This document shows, in pieces, positions 29,295-37,950 of a DNA stretch of 64,000 bases. Under the pieces are notes generated by a model. That model did no database searches and was not told where the DNA came from. It saw nothing but the letters and a program-made list of their open reading frames with translations. The stretch lies in NCBI RefSeq assembly GCF_013385985.1, contig NZ_JACAOY010000006.1:774198-838197 (forward strand), written 5' to 3'. The stretch's first letter is position 1, and each line of letters begins with the position of its first letter. The stretch is from Pseudomonas sp. B6002. Lineage in GTDB: Bacteria > Pseudomonadota > Gammaproteobacteria > Pseudomonadales > Pseudomonadaceae. A program made the translations under genes and the position numbers.

Positions 29295-30209
29295 TTGACT
29301 GAGTCTATCCGCAACCCGCTGACCCTTTACCTCACCCGCCTAGCGCCCTCCAGCCAGCTGACCATGCGCTACGTGCTGCAAGATGCGGCCGACCGCCTGG
29401 GCTTTGAAGACATCAACCTCGAAGACATCGACTGGCATTTGCTGCAGCCGGAGCATGTGATTGCCCTGGTGGCCGCGCTGCGTGAGGACGGCTATGCGCC
29501 GAACACCTCGTCGCTGTACGTGAACGCGGTGCGCGGCGTGATGAACGAAGCGTGGCGGATGAGCCTGATCAGCCAGGATCACTTATTGAAGATGCGCTCG
29601 GTCAAGGCAGCTCCCGGCACCCGCCTGGGCCAGGGGCGCAACCTGCGCCGTACGCTGATCCGCGAAATGATGGCAGTGTGCGCTGCTGACCCCCGCCCCC
29701 AGGGCCTGCGGGATGCGGCGGTGATCGGCATCCTCTATGGCTCGGGCATGCGCAAGTCGGAATCGGTCAACCTGGACCTGGCCCAGGTCAACTTTGACGA
29801 ACGCAGCCTGCGGGTGACCGGCAAGGGCAACAAAGAGTTGATCAAGTACGCGCCCGCCTGGGCTTTTGAAAAGCTGCAGGCGTGGCTGGCGTTTCGTCGC
29901 GAGCAGCTCAAGGAAGGCGAGCAAGACGATGCTTTTCTGTTCAATCGCATTCGCCGGGGCAGCCACATCACCCGCGAGCGCATTACCAAACATGCGATCT
30001 ACTACATCGCCCGCCAACGGGGTGAACAGGTGGGGGTGAAGATCATGCCTCACGATTTTCGCCGCTCGTTCATCACGCGGGTGATCGAAGAGCATGACCT
30101 GTCAATTGCGCAGAAACTGGCGCATCACACCAACATCCAGACCACCGCCAGCTATGACGTGCGTGAGGATAACGAGCGGCGCCGCGCAGTCGACCGCTTT
30201 GACCTGTAG
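29295..30209 (+). CDS. Orphan tyrosine site-specific recombinase (integrase family)
   Basis: A 304-residue recombinase. An N-terminal SAM-like domain (1-100) precedes the catalytic domain: Arg152 in GSGMRKSE, Lys in GKGNKEL, His-x-x-Arg in PHDFRRS, His in LAHHTN and the nucleophile Tyr287 in ASYDVR. All catalytic residues are present. Start is TTG; the next ATG would cut into the N-terminal domain. No excisionase, phage or integron genes surround it, and GC content matches the core genome, so it looks resident. Target unknown. Confidence 0.85.
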   Translation: MTESIRNPLTLYLTRLAPSSQLTMRYVLQDAADRLGFEDINLEDIDWHLLQPEHVIALVAALREDGYAPNTSSLYVNAVRGVMNEAWRMSLISQDHLLKMRSVKAAPGTRLGQGRNLRRTLIREMMAVCAADPRPQGLRDAAVIGILYGSGMRKSESVNLDLAQVNFDERSLRVTGKGNKELIKYAPAWAFEKLQAWLAFRREQLKEGEQDDAFLFNRIRRGSHITRERITKHAIYYIARQRGEQVGVKIMPHDFRRSFITRVIEEHDLSIAQKLAHHTNIQTTASYDVREDNERRRAVDRFDL

Positions 30210-30654: not shown

Positions 30655-30672
30655 GTCATAACTCGTTATGAC
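30655..30672. promoter_or_regulatory. Perfect 18-bp palindrome, GntR operator candidate
   Basis: GTCATAACTCGTTATGAC has eight-base perfect arms around TC and ends 11 bases before the GntR start. Spacing and symmetry fit a HutC-subfamily dimer, and the position would repress the whole operon including the regulator. Confidence 0.7.
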
Positions 30673-30683
30673 AAGTGGCCTTG

Positions 30684-31445
30684 ATGAACGAATCCGCCGT
30701 TGCCTTATCCCCGCTGTCCAGTATTCCCCTGCATGCGCAACTGCGTGATTTGTTGCGCAGCGGCATCCTGGATGGCCAATACGCCCCCAATACGCAAATG
30801 CCGTCCGAAGCCGAATTGGGCGCGCGCTTCAAGGTCAGTCGGATCACCGTGCGCCAGGCCTTGGGCGACCTGCAGAAAGAAGGGCTGATCTTCAAGATCC
30901 ACGGCAAAGGCACCTTCGTGTCCAAACCCAAGGCCTACCAGAACGTCAGCACCCTGCAAGGCTTGGCGGAATCCATGACCGAACGCGGCTATGAAGTGAT
31001 CAACCGCCTGCGCAGCTTTCGCTTTGTGCCAGCCGACAAGCAAGTAGCCGAGCGCCTGGGCGTGGAGGAGGGCACCACGGTTGCGCAGATCAAGCGGGTG
31101 CGCCTGATCAACCGCGAGCCGGTGTCCCTGGAAATCACCTACCTCAACCAGGCATTGGGCGAGCGCCTGGAAAAAGCCGACCTGGTCACCCGTGACATCT
31201 TCCTGATCCTGGAAAACGACTGCGGCCTGCAACTGGGCCATGCCGATGTCGCTATTGATGCAGTCCTGGCCGACAGCGACCTGACCCAGGCGCTGAACGT
31301 GGAGCCCGGTTCGCCGATCATGCACATCGAACGCCTGACCCACACCGCCGACGGCCAGCCCGTGGACTTCGAGCACCTGTACTACCGTGGCGATGCGTTC
31401 CAGTACCGCCTGCGCATCGATCGCGAGCGAGGAGCCCGCCCATGA
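30684..31445 (+). CDS. GntR-family (HutC/UTRA) transcriptional regulator
   Basis: A repressor of about 253 residues. The winged helix covers residues 10-75 (QMPSEAELGARFKVSRITVRQALGDLQKEGLI, shown here only to place the recognition helix), then a UTRA effector domain (about 95-245). ATG 30684 is chosen; a GTG three codons earlier is possible. Its stop overlaps the flavoprotein start (ATGA), so it is the first gene of the operon it probably controls. Effector likely the imported substrate or a product. Confidence 0.88.
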   Translation: MNESAVALSPLSSIPLHAQLRDLLRSGILDGQYAPNTQMPSEAELGARFKVSRITVRQALGDLQKEGLIFKIHGKGTFVSKPKAYQNVSTLQGLAESMTERGYEVINRLRSFRFVPADKQVAERLGVEEGTTVAQIKRVRLINREPVSLEITYLNQALGERLEKADLVTRDIFLILENDCGLQLGHADVAIDAVLADSDLTQALNVEPGSPIMHIERLTHTADGQPVDFEHLYYRGDAFQYRLRIDRERGARP

Positions 31446-33163
31446 GCCGCCAGACCCTGGAACTGGAATACGACATCGTGGTGATCGGTGGCGGCACGGC
31501 CGGCCCCATGGCGGCGATCAAGGCCAAGGAAGCCAACCGCGACCTGCGCGTGCTGCTGATCGACAAGGCCAACGTGAAGCGCAGCGGCGCGATCAGCATG
31601 GGCATGGACGGGCTGAACAACGCGATCATCCCGGGCCACTCGACGCCCGAGCAGTACACCAAGGAAATCACCATCGCTAACGACGGCATCGTCAACCAGG
31701 CCGCGGTGTATGCCTACGCCACCCACAGTTTTGAAACCATCGAGCAACTGGACCGCTGGGGCGTGAAGTTCGAGAAGGACGAGACGGGCGACTACGCAGT
31801 GAAGAAGGTCCACCACATGGGCGCCTATGTGCTGCCCATGCCCGAAGGCCATGACATCAAGAAGGTCCTTTACCGCCAGCTCAAGCGTGCGCGGGTGAAC
31901 ATCACCAACCGCCTGGTGTGCACGCGCCTGCTGACCGACAGCGAGGGCGCAGTCAACGGGGTGATGGGCTTTGACTGCCGCACGGCGGACTTCCAGGTGA
32001 TCAAGGCCAAGGCGGTGATCCTATGCTGCGGCGCGGCCGGCCGCCTGGGCCTGCCGTCTTCGGGCTACCTGATGGGCACCTATGAAAACCCCACCAACGC
32101 CGGCGACGGCTACGCCATGGCCTACCACGCCGGGGCGGAGCTGGCGAACCTGGAATGTTTCCAGATCAACCCGCTGATCAAGGACTACAACGGCCCTGCC
32201 TGCGCCTACGTCACCGGCCCATTGGGCGGCTACACCGCCAACAACAAAGGTGAGCGCTTCATTGAGTGCGACTACTGGAGCGGTCAGATGATGTGGGAGT
32301 TCCACCAGGAGCTGGAAAGCGGCAACGGCCCGGTGTTCTTGAAGCTCGACCACCTGGCCGAGGAAACCATCCAGAACATCGAACAGATCCTGCACAGCAA
32401 CGAGCGGCCCAGCCGAGGCCAGTTCCACGCTAACCGGGGCACGGATTACCGCAGCGACATGGTGGAAATGCACATTTCCGAGATCGGCTTTTGCAGCGGG
32501 CATTCGGCCTCCGGCGTGTGGGTCAACGAACGGGCGGAAACCTCGGTAAAAGGTCTGTATTCGGCGGGCGACATGGCGGCGGTGCCGCACAACTACATGC
32601 TCGGCGCGTTTACCTATGGCTGGTTCGCCGGCACCAATGCGGCGCAGTACGTGGCCGAGCGTGAGTTCAGTGCGGTCAGCGCCGAACAGGTCGCCGCCGA
32701 ACAGGCCCGGGTGTATGCGCCGCTGGACCGCGACACCGGGCTGCCACCGGCCCAGGTGGAATACAAGCTGCGTCGCTTCGTGAATGACTACCTGCAACCG
32801 CCCAAGGTCACCCGCAAGATGGAGATCGGCCTGCAGCGCTTTGGCGATATCCAGCGCGACCTGGACCAGATGAAGGCCCACAACCCTCACGAACTGATGC
32901 GCGCCATGGAAACCAGTGTGATCCGCGACTGCGCCGAAATGGCCGCCCGCGCCTCGCTGTACCGCGCCGAAAGCCGCTGGGGGCTGTACCACCACCGGGT
33001 CGATCACCCGCTGCGCAATGACGCCGACTGGTTTTGCCATTGCCACCTGAAAAAGGGCGAAAACGGGCAGATGGTCAGCTTCAAGAAGCCGGTAGAGCCC
33101 TACGTCATCCCCCTGGACGCCGACGAACTGCAAGCCTACGACCGCCTGCGCGTCACCTTGTAG
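31442..33163 (+). CDS. AprA-like flavoprotein (fumarate reductase / adenylylsulfate reductase family)
   Basis: A 573-residue FAD enzyme. The N-terminal dinucleotide motif is VVIGGGTAGPMAAIKAKEAN, with RSGAISMGMDGLNN nearby, NAGDGYAMAYHAGAEL in the middle and GLYSAGDMAAVPHNYMLGAF for the second FAD-binding part. This is the succinate dehydrogenase/fumarate reductase superfamily; the pairing with an AprB-like ferredoxin makes adenylylsulfate reductase subunit A the closest match by architecture. No signal peptide, so cytoplasmic. Sulfite oxidation or sulfur reduction linked to substrate import is plausible, but substrate is not shown. Confidence 0.8.
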   Translation: MSRQTLELEYDIVVIGGGTAGPMAAIKAKEANRDLRVLLIDKANVKRSGAISMGMDGLNNAIIPGHSTPEQYTKEITIANDGIVNQAAVYAYATHSFETIEQLDRWGVKFEKDETGDYAVKKVHHMGAYVLPMPEGHDIKKVLYRQLKRARVNITNRLVCTRLLTDSEGAVNGVMGFDCRTADFQVIKAKAVILCCGAAGRLGLPSSGYLMGTYENPTNAGDGYAMAYHAGAELANLECFQINPLIKDYNGPACAYVTGPLGGYTANNKGERFIECDYWSGQMMWEFHQELESGNGPVFLKLDHLAEETIQNIEQILHSNERPSRGQFHANRGTDYRSDMVEMHISEIGFCSGHSASGVWVNERAETSVKGLYSAGDMAAVPHNYMLGAFTYGWFAGTNAAQYVAEREFSAVSAEQVAAEQARVYAPLDRDTGLPPAQVEYKLRRFVNDYLQPPKVTRKMEIGLQRFGDIQRDLDQMKAHNPHELMRAMETSVIRDCAEMAARASLYRAESRWGLYHHRVDHPLRNDADWFCHCHLKKGENGQMVSFKKPVEPYVIPLDADELQAYDRLRVTL

Positions 33164-33247
33164 TGAGCGGGCTCGCCCCGCGCTGCGGTGTGTCAGGTAA
33201 AGGTGGGGCGCCTGGTACGCCGCCGCGCGGGGCAAGCCCGCTCACTA
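33161..33247. repeat. REP-type inverted pair inside the operon
   Basis: TAGTGAGCGGGCTCGCCCCG and its inverse (CGGGGCAAGCCCGCTCACTA) flank about 45 bases. The element begins exactly with the TAG stop of the flavoprotein gene and ends 84 bases before the ferredoxin gene. It could lower expression downstream or stabilise the upstream message. Confidence 0.82.
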
Positions 33248-33330
33248 CAGGACGGGGCGCGCGGCAGGTTTAGAGGCACAGCATTGAAATAACGCATAGA
33301 GAGTGCCAAAGGCACCCAGGACACCGTGAA

Positions 33331-33576
33331 ATGGCCTATCAGCCCCAGGAAATATTCTTTCGCTCCAACGCGCCGGTGACGATCGACGAAGACAAGTGCA
33401 TCGCCGAAAAGGGCTGCACCGTGTGCGTCGACGTGTGCCCCATGGACCTGCTGGCGATCAACCCGGCCACGCAGAAGGCCTACATGGCGTTCGACGAATG
33501 CTGGTACTGCATGCCCTGCGAGAAGGACTGCCCCACCGGCGCCGTCAAGGTCGAGATCCCGTACCTGCTGCGCTGA
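33331..33576 (+). CDS. AprB-like 2[4Fe-4S] ferredoxin
   Basis: An 81-residue protein with two cluster motifs: C-x5-C-x2-C-x3-CP (KCIAEKGCTVCVDVCP) and C-x2-C-x2-C-x3-CP (CWYCMPCEKDCP). The tryptophan and CWxC start of the second motif recall dissimilatory AprB, which lacks here its long C-terminal tail. It would carry electrons to or from the flavoprotein. Start ATG; the 167-base gap from the previous gene is taken up mainly by a REP element. Confidence 0.87.
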   Translation: MAYQPQEIFFRSNAPVTIDEDKCIAEKGCTVCVDVCPMDLLAINPATQKAYMAFDECWYCMPCEKDCPTGAVKVEIPYLLR

Positions 33577-33695
33577 GTGTGTTGATTCAAAGCCATCCGC
33601 CTACACCGGACGCCCACGCTGCACCCCCTCGTTTCCCACCGTGCCCGATCACGGCGGAGACGATCCTATAACCATGATTCGAGGGGAAATACCCA

Positions 33696-35102
33696 ATGTT
33701 CTTGCGCGCAACCATTGCCAGCCTGGTGCTGGCCTCCCTGAGCCTGTCCGTGCAGGCCCAGACCATCCGGGTGGCCATCGGCACCCAGGACACCACCATC
33801 AACTGCGCCGCCGGCGGCCTGCTGATCCGCGAACTGGGGCTGCTGGACAAGTACTTGCCCCACGACGGCCAATACAAGGACGCCACCTACGATATCCAGT
33901 GGAAGAACTTCACCAGCGGTGCGCCACTGACCAATGAAATGGTCGCCGGCAAACTCGATTTCGGCGCCATGGCCGACTTCCCCGGGGCGTTCAACGGCGT
34001 GGCGTATGAAACGGCGGGCAAGCACAGCCTGTTTATCAGCGTGCTGTCGGGCAACATCAAGGGTAGCGGCAATGGCATCGTGGTGCCGACCGCGTCTTCG
34101 GCGCAGTCCCTGGCGGACCTTAAGGGCAAAACCATCTCCGTACCCTTCGCCTCCACGGCCCACGGCATGCTGCTGCGTGCCGTGGCTGCCCAGGGCTGGG
34201 ACCCGCTCAAGGACGTGAACATCATCGCCCAGGCGCCCGAAGTCGCCGGGTCGGCGTTACAGGCTGACAAGATCGACGCCCACGCCGACTTTGTGCCGTT
34301 TGCCGAGTTGTTCCCCAACCGTGGTTTTGCCCGCAAGATCTACGACGGCTCGCAATCCAACACCCCGACCTTCCACGGTGCCCTGGTGGATGAAAGCTAT
34401 GCGCGCCAGTACCCCGAAGTGGTGGTCGCCTACCTGCGTGCGAGTATCGAAGCCAATCAATTACTCGCTGCTGAGCCTGAAAAGTACAGCGAGCTGATCG
34501 AAAAAGTCACCGGCGTCGAAGCCGAGGTCAACTACCTGTTCCACGGGCCGCTGGGCGTGCAAACCCGTGACCTCAGCTGGAAACCGGAATACCGCCAGGC
34601 CGTGGGCACGGCCATCGACACCCTCAAGCTGCTGAAAAAGGCTGACCGTGGCCTGGACCTCAACACCTTCATTGACGACCAGTACATCCGCGCAGCCTTC
34701 AAGGCGTCGGGCCTGGATTATCAAGCGCAACTGGCCAACTACGCCCAGGCGCCGCTCAAGGCCAACGACGCGCTCACGGGCAAGCCCATCACCGACTGGA
34801 GCCACGTCGCGCAGATCTGGGTCAAGGGCGAGCCCAAGGTACGTGATTACGCCTCGGCCGAAGCGGCGTTCAGCGCACTCGCCAGCTTGAAAAAAGACGG
34901 CAAGGCCGTGCGTGCGGTGTACGCCCAGGCCCAGGACAGCGGCATCAAGCTGCTGGCCAGCCAAGCCTGGTTTGCCAGTGATCGCCAGGGCAAGTTGAGT
35001 GCCTTCCTGCTCAAGGGCCAGGCGCAGCAATTTGCTGACGCCCAGGGCGGCCAGGTGTTTGACTTCACCCGTGCCGGCGCCCAAGCCGTCGCCGGTCGCT
35101 GA
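33696..35102 (+). CDS. ABC transporter periplasmic substrate-binding protein (SsuA/TauA/NrtA-like)
   Basis: A 468-residue exported protein; signal peptide MFLRATIASLVLASLSLSVQA. The mature part has the NMT1-like pattern VAIGTQDTTINCAAGGLLIRE, LDFGAMADFPGAFNG and LKGKTISVPFASTAHGMLLR. It is longer than SsuA because of a C-terminal extension of about 130 residues. GAGGGG lies before the ATG. Binds the substrate for the permease and ATPase that follow. Confidence 0.85.
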   Translation: MFLRATIASLVLASLSLSVQAQTIRVAIGTQDTTINCAAGGLLIRELGLLDKYLPHDGQYKDATYDIQWKNFTSGAPLTNEMVAGKLDFGAMADFPGAFNGVAYETAGKHSLFISVLSGNIKGSGNGIVVPTASSAQSLADLKGKTISVPFASTAHGMLLRAVAAQGWDPLKDVNIIAQAPEVAGSALQADKIDAHADFVPFAELFPNRGFARKIYDGSQSNTPTFHGALVDESYARQYPEVVVAYLRASIEANQLLAAEPEKYSELIEKVTGVEAEVNYLFHGPLGVQTRDLSWKPEYRQAVGTAIDTLKLLKKADRGLDLNTFIDDQYIRAAFKASGLDYQAQLANYAQAPLKANDALTGKPITDWSHVAQIWVKGEPKVRDYASAEAAFSALASLKKDGKAVRAVYAQAQDSGIKLLASQAWFASDRQGKLSAFLLKGQAQQFADAQGGQVFDFTRAGAQAVAGR

Positions 35103-35115
35103 CAGGAACATGCCC

Positions 35116-35898
35116 ATGCCGACTGCTGCTTATCGCTGGTTGCCCCGTGCCAGCTCGTTGCTGGTGTGCCTGCTGTTCTGGCAACTCGCTGCCAGCCATC
35201 ACTGGAACCTGTGGCTGGTGACCTTCGCCAATGTGCCCACGCCTGGCGCTGTGCTGGAGGCGACGCTGGCCCTGGTGGACTCGGGCAAGCTGGCCCGGCA
35301 CCTGGGGGCCAGCCTGGGCCGGGTGTTTGAAGGTTACCTGGTGGCGGTGCTGGTGGGCGTCGGGCTGGGGATCGCCATTGGCCGCTGGAAATGGGCCGAG
35401 GATGTCTTGCTGCCACCGCTGGAAGTGATCCGTCCGATTCCTGCAGTGGCGTGGATTCCCCTGGCGATCCTGATGTTCCCGTCGTCGCAACTGTCGATGG
35501 TGTTCATCACCTTCACCGGCGCGCTGTTTCCGATCCTGCTCAACACCGTGCATGGCGTTGAAGGGGTAGACCCACGGTTGATCGCATCAGCGCGCAGCCT
35601 GGGGGCAGGGCGCGGCGCCATTTTGCGCGAAGTGATCGTGCCGGGCGCTGCGCCGAGCATCATCACTGGCCTGGCCATTGGCATGGGCACGTCGTGGTTC
35701 TGCCTGGTGACGGCCGAGATGATCTCGGGGCAGTTCGGCATCGGTTACTACACCTGGGAGTCGTACACCCTGCAGAACTATGCCGACATCGTGGTCGGCA
35801 TGTTGTTGATCGGCGTACTGGGCATGGGCAGCAGTTGGCTGGTCAAGCGCCTGGGCGCGGCATTCACCCCTTGGCATCGCCTGCGAGGTAAAGCCTGA
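35116..35898 (+). CDS. ABC transporter permease (SsuC/TauC-like)
   Basis: A permease of about 260 residues with five to six membrane helices and the EAA loop (ASARSLGAGRGAILREVIVPGAAPSI spans it). Start taken at ATG 35116 because AGGA is eight bases upstream; ATG 35110 is too close to it. It follows the binding-protein gene by 13 bases and overlaps the ATPase gene (TGATG). Confidence 0.87.
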   Translation: MPTAAYRWLPRASSLLVCLLFWQLAASHHWNLWLVTFANVPTPGAVLEATLALVDSGKLARHLGASLGRVFEGYLVAVLVGVGLGIAIGRWKWAEDVLLPPLEVIRPIPAVAWIPLAILMFPSSQLSMVFITFTGALFPILLNTVHGVEGVDPRLIASARSLGAGRGAILREVIVPGAAPSIITGLAIGMGTSWFCLVTAEMISGQFGIGYYTWESYTLQNYADIVVGMLLIGVLGMGSSWLVKRLGAAFTPWHRLRGKA

Positions 35899-36728
35899 TG
35901 GAAGGTCGTATAGCAATCAGCGGGTTGTCGATTGTGCTGGGCGAAAAAGCCCAGGCTTTTGAGGCGGTCAAGGCACTTGATTGCAGCATCGAGCCGGGCC
36001 AGTTCGTGTGCATCCTGGGGCCGTCGGGCTGCGGCAAGTCCACGTTGCTTGGCGCGCTGGCGGGCCACCTGGTGCCGAGCCAGGGCACCTTGCACATGGA
36101 CGGGCAGGCGGTGTCCGGGCCGTCCCAGCAGCGCGGCATGGTGTTTCAGCAACACACGCTGTTCCCGTGGCGCAGTGTGCGTGAGAACGTCGCGTTCGGC
36201 CTGAAGATGCGTGGGGTCGGCAAGGCCGAGCGATTGGCGGCGGCGGATGAAATCCTCGCGCTGGTGGGGCTGCAGGGCTTTGCCGAGCGCTGGCCGAATC
36301 AATTGTCGGGCGGCATGCAGCAACGGGTGGAAATCGCTCGGGTGCTGATCAATCGCCCGCGCCTGTTGCTGATGGACGAACCGTTTGGCGCGCTGGACGC
36401 GCTGACACGCATGAAGATGCAGGCCTTGCTGCTGGATATCTGGACGCAGATCCGCACCACCGTGGTGTTTGTCACCCATGACATTGATGAAGCGCTGTTC
36501 CTGGCCGACCGTATCCTGGTAATGAGCCCGCGCCCGGGCCGCATTATCGAAGACTTCGCCCTGGACTTCCCGCGCCCGCGCCACACCGGGCTGATGACCA
36601 CCCCTGAATTTACCCACCTCAAGCGCCACTGCCTGGAACTGCTGCACCACGAAGAGGGACGCCAGTTGCCCCGGTTGAACCCGCTTGGGTTGCCCATTGA
36701 TCATTCCATACCGCGATTTGCCATATGA
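35898..36728 (+). CDS. ABC transporter ATP-binding protein (SsuB/TauB-like)
   Basis: A 276-residue ATPase with Walker A GPSGCGKSTL, Q-loop FQQHTLFPW, signature LSGGMQQRVEIAR, Walker B LLLMDEPFGALD and the H-loop VTHDIDEAL. The pattern is that of the nitrate/sulfonate/taurine group. Shares two bases with the permease stop and four with the HEAT gene start. Confidence 0.92.
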   Translation: MEGRIAISGLSIVLGEKAQAFEAVKALDCSIEPGQFVCILGPSGCGKSTLLGALAGHLVPSQGTLHMDGQAVSGPSQQRGMVFQQHTLFPWRSVRENVAFGLKMRGVGKAERLAAADEILALVGLQGFAERWPNQLSGGMQQRVEIARVLINRPRLLLMDEPFGALDALTRMKMQALLLDIWTQIRTTVVFVTHDIDEALFLADRILVMSPRPGRIIEDFALDFPRPRHTGLMTTPEFTHLKRHCLELLHHEEGRQLPRLNPLGLPIDHSIPRFAI

Positions 36729-37669
36729 CCTATAACCCCGAAATAGAAGCCCTGCGCCCACGCTTGCAGGCGCCCGACGCTGCCATGCGGCGCATTGCCC
36801 TGATCGACCTGGCCGACCTGGAAGAACCCGACGGCTTGGCGTGGCTGGTGGACAGCCTGCGCCAGGACCCGGCCGTGGAAGTGCGCGCCCAAGCGGCCGC
36901 TTTGCTGGAGGCCTGGGAAGAGGATGAGGTGGTGCAGGCACTGTGCGAGGCGCTGACCGATGCGGAACCTGCGGTGCGCGAGGCGGCCGCGCAAAGCTTG
37001 AGCGTCTTGAAGACGCCCGAGGCAGGCACGCTGTTGTTGCCCTGGACCGAACACGCTGACGTGAGTGTGCGCACGGCGATCTTCCGTGCCTTGCGCGAGT
37101 TGCGCCTGGAGGCCGCTGCGCCCTCGGCGTTACACGCTTTAGCGGACGCCGATGCGGGTATCCGCCGCGAAGCCGTGGGCGTGCTCGGTTGGCTAAAGCA
37201 CCTGCCCGCGCTGGAAGCGTTGGCCAGATTGGCCAGCAGCGACCCGGACACCGAAGTACGCCGCGCGGCCACCGGCGCCCTCGGCCTGGCCAGCGATGAG
37301 CAGGTGTTGCCAGCGCTGTACCAGGCCCTGCTGGACCCGGCCTGGCAAGTACGTGAAGAGGCAGCGACCACCCTGGGCAAAGTCGGCAGTCACAACGCCG
37401 GCGAGGCACTGGTTGCCGCATTGAGCGATGAATACTGGCAAGTGCGCTTGCGGGCCACCCGCAGCCTGGGGCGGTTGCGCTATGCGCCGGCGCTCGACGC
37501 ACTCGTCCAGGCGTTGGGCCACAGCATCAGCAACCTGCGCAAGGAAGCGGCGTTGTCATTGGGTGAGTTGGGCGACCGCCAGGCGTTGAGTGCCCTGCGG
37601 GATGCCGCCGACGACGCCGACCCGGAAGTGCGCAAGGCCGTGCGGATCGCCCTGGCGCAACTGCAATGA
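36725..37669 (+). CDS. HEAT-repeat (PBS lyase-type) protein
   Basis: A 314-residue soluble protein built almost wholly of about nine helical pairs, e.g. DPAVEVRAQAAALLEAW, EPAVREAAAQSLSVL, DAGIRREAVGVLGWL, DPEVRKAVRIALAQL. Such repeats form a curved protein-binding scaffold. Its start overlaps the ATPase gene (ATGA) and its stop overlaps the DUF971 gene (ATGA). Possibly a maturation or docking factor for the flavoprotein-ferredoxin pair; that is inference from the coupling only. Confidence 0.85.
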   Translation: MTYNPEIEALRPRLQAPDAAMRRIALIDLADLEEPDGLAWLVDSLRQDPAVEVRAQAAALLEAWEEDEVVQALCEALTDAEPAVREAAAQSLSVLKTPEAGTLLLPWTEHADVSVRTAIFRALRELRLEAAAPSALHALADADAGIRREAVGVLGWLKHLPALEALARLASSDPDTEVRRAATGALGLASDEQVLPALYQALLDPAWQVREEAATTLGKVGSHNAGEALVAALSDEYWQVRLRATRSLGRLRYAPALDALVQALGHSISNLRKEAALSLGELGDRQALSALRDAADDADPEVRKAVRIALAQLQ

Positions 37670-37950
37670 CCGCCGCCCCCAGCGGGATTGGCAAAGGCGC
37701 GGACGGGCGATTGCGCCTGGAATGGGCCGACCGCACCCAGTGGATCGATCACGCCCGGTTGCGCCGTGAATGCCCGTGCTCGCAATGCCGGGCGTTCCGC
37801 TTGCGTGGCAGCCAGCCAAGGGTGTCGGATGCAGTGCGTGTGCTGCAGATTCACCCGCAGGGTTACGGCGTGCAGCTGGTGTTCAGCGACGGGCACGAGC
37901 GCGGCATCTATCCGTGGGCGTACCTGGCCGGCATGGGCAGCGACGCCTAG
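37666..37950 (+). CDS. DUF971 protein
   Basis: A 94-residue protein with RLEWADRTQWIDHARLRRECPCSQCRA compressed as the family's core (Cys-Pro-Cys-x2-Cys at about 37-41) and SDGHERGIYPWAYL at the end. DUF971 is related to the N-terminal domain of gamma-butyrobetaine hydroxylase and to proteins of Fe-S assembly; the clustered cysteines could bind metal. Last gene of the operon; its stop overlaps the convergent LysR gene by four bases. Confidence 0.85.
   Translation: MTAAPSGIGKGADGRLRLEWADRTQWIDHARLRRECPCSQCRAFRLRGSQPRVSDAVRVLQIHPQGYGVQLVFSDGHERGIYPWAYLAGMGSDA

What the first reader, a model, noticed from the sequence alone, without database searches (positions are those of the whole stretch)
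30655..37950. GntR-controlled AprBA-like redox enzyme with its own ABC importer, HEAT and DUF971 partners
Seven genes, most overlapping by 2-4 bases, join an adenylylsulfate-reductase-like flavoprotein, a ferredoxin whose second cluster motif recalls AprB, a sulfonate/nitrate-type importer, a helical-repeat scaffold and a cysteine-cluster DUF971 protein. A heterotrophic Pseudomonas has no dissimilatory sulfate pathway, so the pair must do something else, for example sulfite or organosulfur oxidation or reduction of an imported compound. HEAT and DUF971 may be maturation factors. I know of no characterised system with exactly this make-up.
Basis: partly seen in the sequence, partly recalled or inferred. 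Interest (0 to 1): 0.75.

Follow-up and report, generated by a model that had tools for sequence, protein, structure and literature searches.

The report
Sulfonate-linked AprA-like reductase gene module
A conserved set of genes, found in soil and plant bacteria of three phyla, pairs a sulfonate-type importer with an unstudied iron-sulfur flavoenzyme that probably takes in electrons to release sulfur from an imported compound, and databases misname the enzyme as a fumarate reductase.

Summary
At 30655-37950 lie a GntR/UTRA regulator and seven genes: flavoprotein, two-cluster ferredoxin, ABC importer (three genes), HEAT protein and DUF971 protein. Flavoprotein and HEAT gene occur in the same 50 of 150 Pseudomonas genomes, and related modules lie in Pseudomonadota, Cyanobacteriota and Actinomycetota. 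The flavoprotein passes NCBIfam PRK08275, for which my searches found no functional study. It lies on the AprA side of its superfamily but lacks the AprA arginine (Leu245 in 32 of 32 rows), so it is not an APS reductase; nor is it a fumarate reductase. Three clues suggest assimilatory sulfur release from a sulfonate-type ligand: the binding protein keeps TauA's sulfonate Gln/Gly contacts; sulfur genes lie near 9 of 17 annotated relatives; ferredoxin-NADP reductase-like genes lie near ten, directly upstream in one genus. New details: a NosL-like domain on the binding protein and a conserved operator at 30655-30672. The nearest known kind is the asf arylsulfonate system (reductase, ferredoxin, binding protein); its likely Cupriavidus metallidurans pair is only about 23% identical, but I had no sequence of the studied AsfA. 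No structure model came back. Substrate and reaction are inferred.

The parts
30655..30672 (+). operator-like palindrome GTCATAACTCGTTATGAC just before the GntR start codon
   Evidence: Found with up to 3 mismatches before GntR in 102 of 108 rows, some rows being the same genome twice (worse in L081, L085, L097, L101/L122, L001); in the own genome the only other match with up to 2 mismatches has 2
30675..31445 (+). GntR family regulator with UTRA domain
   Evidence: PF00392 and PF07702 over cut-off
31442..33163 (+). AprA-side FAD flavoprotein, family PRK08275
   Evidence: NF006131 1137 bits against cut-off 587; aprA model 178 against 642; trees
33331..33576 (+). two-cluster 4Fe-4S ferredoxin, AprB-like, Trp between the cluster II cysteines
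33696..35102 (+). ABC substrate-binding protein: SsuA/TauA-like domain plus C-terminal NosL-like domain (about residues 345-468)
35110..35898 (+). ABC permease
   Evidence: PF00528; start read from sequence
35898..36728 (+). ABC ATPase
   Evidence: PF00005
36725..37669 (+). HEAT-repeat protein; a HEAT region is fused to the flavoprotein in an actinomycete
   Evidence: PF13646; L154 fusion
37666..37950 (+). DUF971 / GBBH-like_N protein
   Evidence: PF06155 69.4 bits

Best explanation
An assimilatory organosulfur module. The regulator represses the operon through the palindrome at 30655-30672 until an effector appears (inferred). The ABC importer takes up a sulfonate-type anion (ligand class inferred from binding-site residues). 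Electrons from NADPH pass through a ferredoxin-NADP reductase and ferredoxin to the AprB-like ferredoxin, then to the FAD of the flavoprotein (inferred from gene neighbours and homology to APS/PAPS reductases). The reduced FAD cleaves or reduces the imported compound so that sulfite is released for cysteine synthesis (inferred). HEAT acts as a third subunit or assembly scaffold of the flavoprotein, and DUF971, or Mrp in Pseudanabaena, helps load iron-sulfur clusters (inferred). Shown here: gene make-up, conservation, family placement, missing AprA arginine, conserved binding-site residues, conserved operator.
For: Same 50 of 150 Pseudomonas genomes for flavoprotein and HEAT; binding protein in 49 of those plus one other genome. 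Binding protein Q31, G75 and S153 in 27 of 27 rows, at the TauA Gln30, Gly61 and pre-Thr132 positions (TauA contacts from passages of PMC6906117; the numbering was matched by me through). FNR-like gene in 10 loci of at least five genera, directly upstream of the flavoprotein on its strand in L131-L135 and L138, all of one unnamed genus; FdxA in L002, L004, L128, L137. Sulfur genes near 9 of 17 annotated plasmid loci, 10 if a TSUP transporter 7 kb away is counted: ssuD, TauD/TfdA, tauA, sulfate and sulfonate ABC genes, TauE, YeiH, LLM monooxygenases, rhodanese. Also D-cysteine desulfhydrase with MetQ-like, TauD-like, and SsuA/SsuC-like genes at three other Pseudomonas sites (the TauD-, MetQ- and SsuA-type hits are below their curated cut-offs). 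Nearest solved relative is a reducing assimilatory enzyme, Methanothermococcus PAPS reductase (passages of PMC10322725).
Against: No phenotype, expression or biochemical datum. Substrate unknown. The sulfur keywords were chosen after seeing the loci: 12 of 81 neighbours against 3 of 162 background genes on the same five replicons (Fisher p 1.8e-4; 5 of 162 and p 1.3e-3 if NifS and MsrB are counted), and genes in one operon are not independent. 7 of 17 annotated loci, and the five P. fluorescens-group neighbours scanned, show no sulfur genes. FNR was seen in 10 loci only and not beside the Pseudomonas module. Of four sulfonate-type binding proteins used for comparison one lacks the Gln, and none has Asp at the TauA Asp205 position, so the pocket argument is soft. 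C-S bonds of plain alkanesulfonates look like poor targets for AprA-type chemistry (own reasoning).
Confidence: 0.5

Rival explanations
1. The flavoprotein and ferredoxin are an electron-supply chain for a separate oxygenase that cleaves sulfonates, as proposed for AsfA/AsfB with Ssu enzymes.
For: asfRABC has a similar parts list: binding protein, ABC transporter, reductase/ferredoxin, regulator (passages of PMC4267179); LLM monooxygenases or TauD-like genes lie near several loci
Against: No oxygenase gene is among the eight conserved genes; FNR-like and FdxA genes near some relatives suggest electrons flow into the pair; the flavoprotein keeps AprA-side residues N59 and H354, and in the homologous APS/PAPS reductases the flavoprotein itself is catalytic
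Confidence: 0.22
2. The flavoprotein reduces a carbon-carbon double bond of an imported unsaturated acid, like fumarate reductase; the sulfur neighbours are incidental.
For: Database name; Q241 is shared with SdhA and NadB
Against: TIGR01812 162 bits against 567 and TIGR01176 128 against 933; the HPT motif reads NPL; the binding protein resembles sulfonate binders
Confidence: 0.12
3. A sulfite or thiosulfate oxidising AprBA-like enzyme running in the oxidative direction.
For: AprA/AprB relatedness
Against: AprA arginine replaced by Leu in 32 of 32 rows; no ATP sulfurylase gene among the eight; FNR-like genes near some relatives
Confidence: 0.04
4. Import and reduction of another oxyanion or small metabolite, not sulfur based (for example nitrogen or metal chemistry; the NosL-like domain would fit metal handling).
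For: C-terminal NosL-like domain on the binding protein; binding protein, permease and ATPase also match nitrate-importer models weakly
Against: Gln/Gly sulfonate site conserved; sulfur neighbours; no Met or Cys in the window's NosL-like domain (read from sequence)
Confidence: 0.12

Closest known systems
asfRABC arylsulfonate desulfurisation cluster (P. putida S-313; AsfA/AsfB named Rmet_4334/5 in C. metallidurans)
   Same: Reductase plus ferredoxin plus binding protein and ABC transporter; sulfonate role; reported from similar soil taxa (passages)
   Different: The pair I take for C. metallidurans AsfAB (L204) is 23% identical to the window flavoprotein and 33% over 57 residues to the ferredoxin, groups with SdhA/NadB rather than AprA, and no HEAT or DUF971 homolog was found in the 19.5 kb around it. 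I had no sequence of S-313 AsfA, so naming L204 AsfAB is an inference
Methanothermococcus thermolithotrophicus PAPS reductase (8a8o)
   Same: AprA/AprB-type alpha and beta subunits, assimilatory, reductive; best solved match
   Different: Has Arg and Trp at the positions where the window enzyme has Leu245 and Tyr214 (alignment); no importer, HEAT or DUF971 partner was mentioned in the passages I saw
Dissimilatory APS reductase AprBA
   Same: Superfamily, two-cluster ferredoxin with a Trp between cysteines
   Different: Far below the aprA and aprB cut-offs; Arg and Trp positions replaced
NCBIfam NF006131/PRK08275 and NF010374/PRK13800
   Same: The window protein is a full member of PRK08275; PRK13800 is the longer model whose C-terminal part matches the window HEAT protein
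   Different: Sequence families named fumarate reductase; my searches found no described function
TauABC/SsuABC sulfonate importers
   Same: Related binding protein, permease and ATPase; sulfonate Gln/Gly contacts kept
   Different: Extra NosL-like domain; Asn at the TauA Glu106 position; below the curated SsuA/TauA cut-offs

Membership tests
PRK08275 (NF006131) | Score over curated cut-off | tested here: met
   1137 bits against 587
APS reductase AprBA | Score over aprA / aprB cut-offs | tested here: not met
   177.8 against 641.75; 36.3 against 135.65
APS reductase AprBA | Catalytic Arg (A. fulgidus Arg265; role recalled) | tested here: not met
   Leu in 32 of 32 rows picked for diversity, Arg in 7 of 7 AprA rows and the PAPS reductase-like row
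APS reductase AprBA | Two-cluster ferredoxin subunit with Trp beside cluster II | tested here: met
Succinate dehydrogenase / fumarate reductase | Score over curated cut-offs; HPT motif | tested here: not met
Succinate dehydrogenase / fumarate reductase | Membrane anchor subunits in the operon | tested here: not met
   none among the eight genes
AsfAB arylsulfonate reductase/ferredoxin | Sequence orthology to AsfA/AsfB | tested here: inconclusive
   No close homolog of the window pair on C. metallidurans NZ_CP046333.1, which I take to be the replicon of Rmet_4334/5; S-313 sequence not available
AsfAB arylsulfonate reductase/ferredoxin | Needed for arylsulfonate use as sulfur source | not testable with these tools
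   needs a mutant
SsuA/TauA sulfonate-binding proteins | Score over curated cut-off | tested here: not met
   TIGR01728 119.5 against 163.5
SsuA/TauA sulfonate-binding proteins | Gln and Gly contacts to the sulfonate group | tested here: met
   27 of 27 rows; the Gly79 position is Ala in 17 of 27
NosL | Domain homology / Cys-Gly-Met metal motif | tested here: inconclusive
   hhalign 98.6%, E 6.6e-16; Pfam gathering score met by 1 of 3 proteins tested, L003 24.1 against 24; the Cys-Gly-Met of NosL is replaced in the window protein

The most novel reading that the evidence does not exclude
The flavoprotein-ferredoxin-HEAT complex is an oxygen-independent, NADPH-driven desulfonating reductase: reduced FAD attacks the sulfonyl sulfur of an imported sulfonate, S-sulfo or sulfamate compound and releases sulfite. 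That would be a new chemical route for aerobic bacteria to take sulfur from organic matter, beside the oxygenases SsuD and TauD, run by a third branch of the AprA/PAPS reductase lineage.
Probability: 0.3. Interest if true: 0.78.

Novelty: new variant of a known kind. Interest (0 to 1): 0.6.

Why it matters
About 95% of soil sulfur is organic, and release from sulfonates in soil bacteria is described as a multi-component monooxygenase process (passages of PMC4267179). A reductive, importer-coupled route in a third of the sampled Pseudomonas genomes and in several rhizobia would change how sulfur supply in soil is read. The family is labelled fumarate reductase in annotation and resembles AprA, so it may mislead genome and metagenome surveys. 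The gene set makes a direct test possible: one deletion and one panel of sulfur sources.

Tried and rejected
Literature: ten searches. PRK08275 gave no paper; PRK13800 gave one listing whose title is on fungal nutrient signalling, not opened. No listed paper was seen to describe the module, but I opened only six, by passages: PMC8557817 (Rhodococcus sulfur proteome, no HEAT-flavoprotein entry in the passages), PMC10322725, PMC10504309, PMC6906117, PMC4267179, PMC9694294 and PMC2864759 make seven with the last. The library lacks most subscription journals; Vermeij 1999 and Schmalenberger 2007 were not read (recalled, and cited in those passages).

APS reductase and fumarate reductase were rejected by cut-offs and residues. 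An orthologous AsfA was looked for on the C. metallidurans replicon: three flavoprotein loci with a ferredoxin-type match nearby were seen (L204, L185, L205), none orthologous to the window pair. L204 was preferred because its flavoprotein and small ferredoxin are adjacent and its relative L214 has flavoprotein, ferredoxin and a TauA-like binding protein in a row. Against this: in L204 itself the binding protein lies elsewhere, L215 and L216 have none directly downstream, and no LysR gene was seen directly next to any of them (a LysR-like frame lies about 2 kb away in L216, by eye).

A first NosL comparison used the wrong neighbouring gene (a membrane protein) and gave no match; it was repeated with the right stretch. 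The only unrelated controls are three module alignments (at most 4.5%).

A viral-contig scan found no relatives. The one Pseudomonas genome with a binding protein but no flavoprotein (G075) gave a contig end and no clue. The trees do not settle monophyly of the orthologs: one side of a branch in 22% of bootstrap trees and 51%, where long branches meet.

Rows dropped: one binding protein under 400 residues of 28 (four picked loci had none); loci under 12 kb, and cut-offs that miss annotated HEAT (L003, L099) and DUF971 (L100, L159). The 32 flavoprotein rows were picked for diversity from over 100.
Full report
What is there. Eight genes on the + strand, GntR to DUF971, fill 30675-37950, preceded by the palindrome GTCATAACTCGTTATGAC at 30655-30672. 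With up to 3 mismatches the palindrome lies near the GntR start in 102 of 108 rows, among them gamma- and betaproteobacterial loci with about 60% identical GntR; some rows are one genome fetched twice. It is worse or absent in L081, L085, L097, L101/L122 and L001. In the own genome the only other match with up to two mismatches has two. Autoregulation is therefore likely; it was not tested.

How conserved it is. Of 150 Pseudomonas genomes, 50 pass the flavoprotein cut-off (in G034 and G080 the gene is split over two frames), the same 50 have the HEAT protein, and 50 have the binding protein: 49 of them shared, G045 lacking it and G075 having a 42% identical one without a flavoprotein. In a sample of 398 genomes of the phylum, the own one included, 21 pass. 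Named relatives include Acinetobacter, Cupriavidus, Paraburkholderia, Variovorax, Acidithiobacillus, Methylobacterium, Methylocystis, rhizobia, Bradyrhizobium, Pseudanabaena and Nonomuraea. In Nonomuraea the order is GntR, ferredoxin, binding protein, permease, ATPase, then flavoprotein fused to HEAT repeats. Pairwise distances of the flavoprotein follow HEAT (0.78) and ferredoxin (0.65) more closely than the binding protein (0.28) over 21 loci. The core is thus flavoprotein, ferredoxin and HEAT, and the importer is more exchangeable.

What the enzyme is. The flavoprotein is PRK08275 (1137 bits, cut-off 587); the aprA, sdhA and frdA models fall far below their cut-offs. The best solved relative is the alpha subunit of Methanothermococcus PAPS reductase. 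A tree with AsfA-like, SdhA and NadB rows puts it with AprA/PAPS reductase at 99/99, with a warning that long branches meet. Against AprA, N59 (the AprA Asn74 position) and H354 are kept, but Leu245 replaces the AprA arginine and Tyr214 its tryptophan in 32 of 32 rows (A. fulgidus numbering counted from the alignment; the roles of those residues are recalled). The ferredoxin keeps its cluster cysteines and the Trp between the cluster II cysteines, as in AprB.

Which way electrons run. A ferredoxin-NADP reductase-like gene is in 10 loci, named by annotation in L004 and matching that family below its cut-off in L128 (175.9 against 390). In L131-L135 and L138, six genomes of one unnamed genus, it is the gene directly upstream of the flavoprotein on the same strand; in the other four it lies up to about 8 kb away. 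FdxA genes are near in L002, L004, L128 and L137. This argues for a reductase. No such gene was seen beside the Pseudomonas module.

What is imported. The binding protein is SsuA/TauA-like. TauA holds the sulfonate by Gln30 and main-chain atoms of Gly61, Gly79 and Thr132, and the amine by Glu106, Thr132 and Asp205 (passages of PMC6906117). In 27 module proteins Q31 and G75 are invariant, the Gly79 position is Ala in 17 and Gly in 10, the Thr132 position is Thr in 16 and Ala in 11, and the Glu106 and Asp205 positions are Asn and His in 27 of 27. Of four sulfonate-type binding proteins put beside them, three have the Gln, two have Glu at the Glu106 position and none has Asp at the Asp205 position, so the pocket argument is suggestive only. 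A sulfonate-type anion without an amine tail fits; it is an inference. The C-terminal part is NosL-like: hhalign 98.6%, E 6.6e-16, against at most 4.5% for three unrelated module alignments.

Sulfur context. Of 17 annotated plasmid loci, 9 carry sulfur-acquisition genes within the stretch shown (10 with a TSUP transporter in L005), and 7 do not. On five replicons, 12 of 81 neighbours against 3 of 162 genes of a distant 40-kb stretch fit sulfur keywords chosen afterwards (against 77-81; counted by hand; Fisher p 1.8e-4; 5 of 162 and p 1.3e-3 with NifS and MsrB). Pseudomonas loci at three further sites lie by D-cysteine desulfhydrase and a MetQ-like gene, TauD-like dioxygenases, or SsuA/SsuC-like genes. 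The five P. fluorescens-group neighbours scanned are not sulfur genes.

Partners. DUF971 is the C-terminal domain of the Fe-S scaffold HCF101 (recalled; HCF101 papers with the term DUF971 appear in the listing). In both Pseudanabaena loci an Mrp/NBP35 protein with an FeS_assembly_P domain follows HEAT instead, and no DUF971 protein was found on those plasmids (their chromosomes were not searched). This favours a maturation role, but DUF971 was also not found near some other modules.

Comparison with the known. The asf cluster for arylsulfonates has a reductase, ferredoxin, binding protein and ABC transporter (passages of PMC4267179), and C. metallidurans AsfA/AsfB are Rmet_4334/5 (passages of PMC2864759). 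On NZ_CP046333.1, which I take for that replicon by its size and source, the window flavoprotein has only a 24% match and the ferredoxin none at 1e-5. A flavoprotein-ferredoxin pair there (L204) has relatives of its flavoprotein in 10 of 150 Pseudomonas genomes, of which G009, G044 and G067 also hold the window module; one of them has a TauA-like binding protein directly downstream (L214). If that pair is AsfAB, the window module is a separate second family of the same general kind; if AsfA of S-313 proved close to the window protein, this would be the known system.

Verdict. A real, widespread variant of a sulfonate-linked flavoprotein-ferredoxin system for which I found no study; substrate and chemistry open.

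Noticed in passing
window 33164-33330: Long inverted repeat (GTGAGCGGGCT... / ...AGCCCGCTCAC), REP-like, between the flavoprotein and ferredoxin genes.
   Followed up: no
window 29295-30209; L013: A site-specific recombinase-like gene lies just upstream of the module (by eye); a XerC/D-type recombinase gene (below curated cut-offs) lies beside the module in L013, in a cluster of five loci, which suggests a mobile history.
   Followed up: partly
L003:7673-9670: In Pseudanabaena a LysR regulator is fused to a weak NMT1-type binding domain, divergent from the module.
   Followed up: no
L204:9026-11001, L206-L216: A separate AsfA-like flavoprotein family, in 10 of 150 Pseudomonas genomes, with a ferredoxin gene adjacent in L214-L216 and LLM-type neighbours by eye.
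   Followed up: partly
L155:7399-12730: Ilyobacter plasmid with an AprA-like flavoprotein and ferredoxin between cysC and cysD: looks like a PAPS reductase operon on a plasmid typed as conjugative.
   Followed up: no
G034, G080; A. caldus SM-1 plasmid NC_015854.1: Flavoprotein gene split over two frames, or matched over only 28% of its length, possible signs of decay in some lineages.
   Followed up: no
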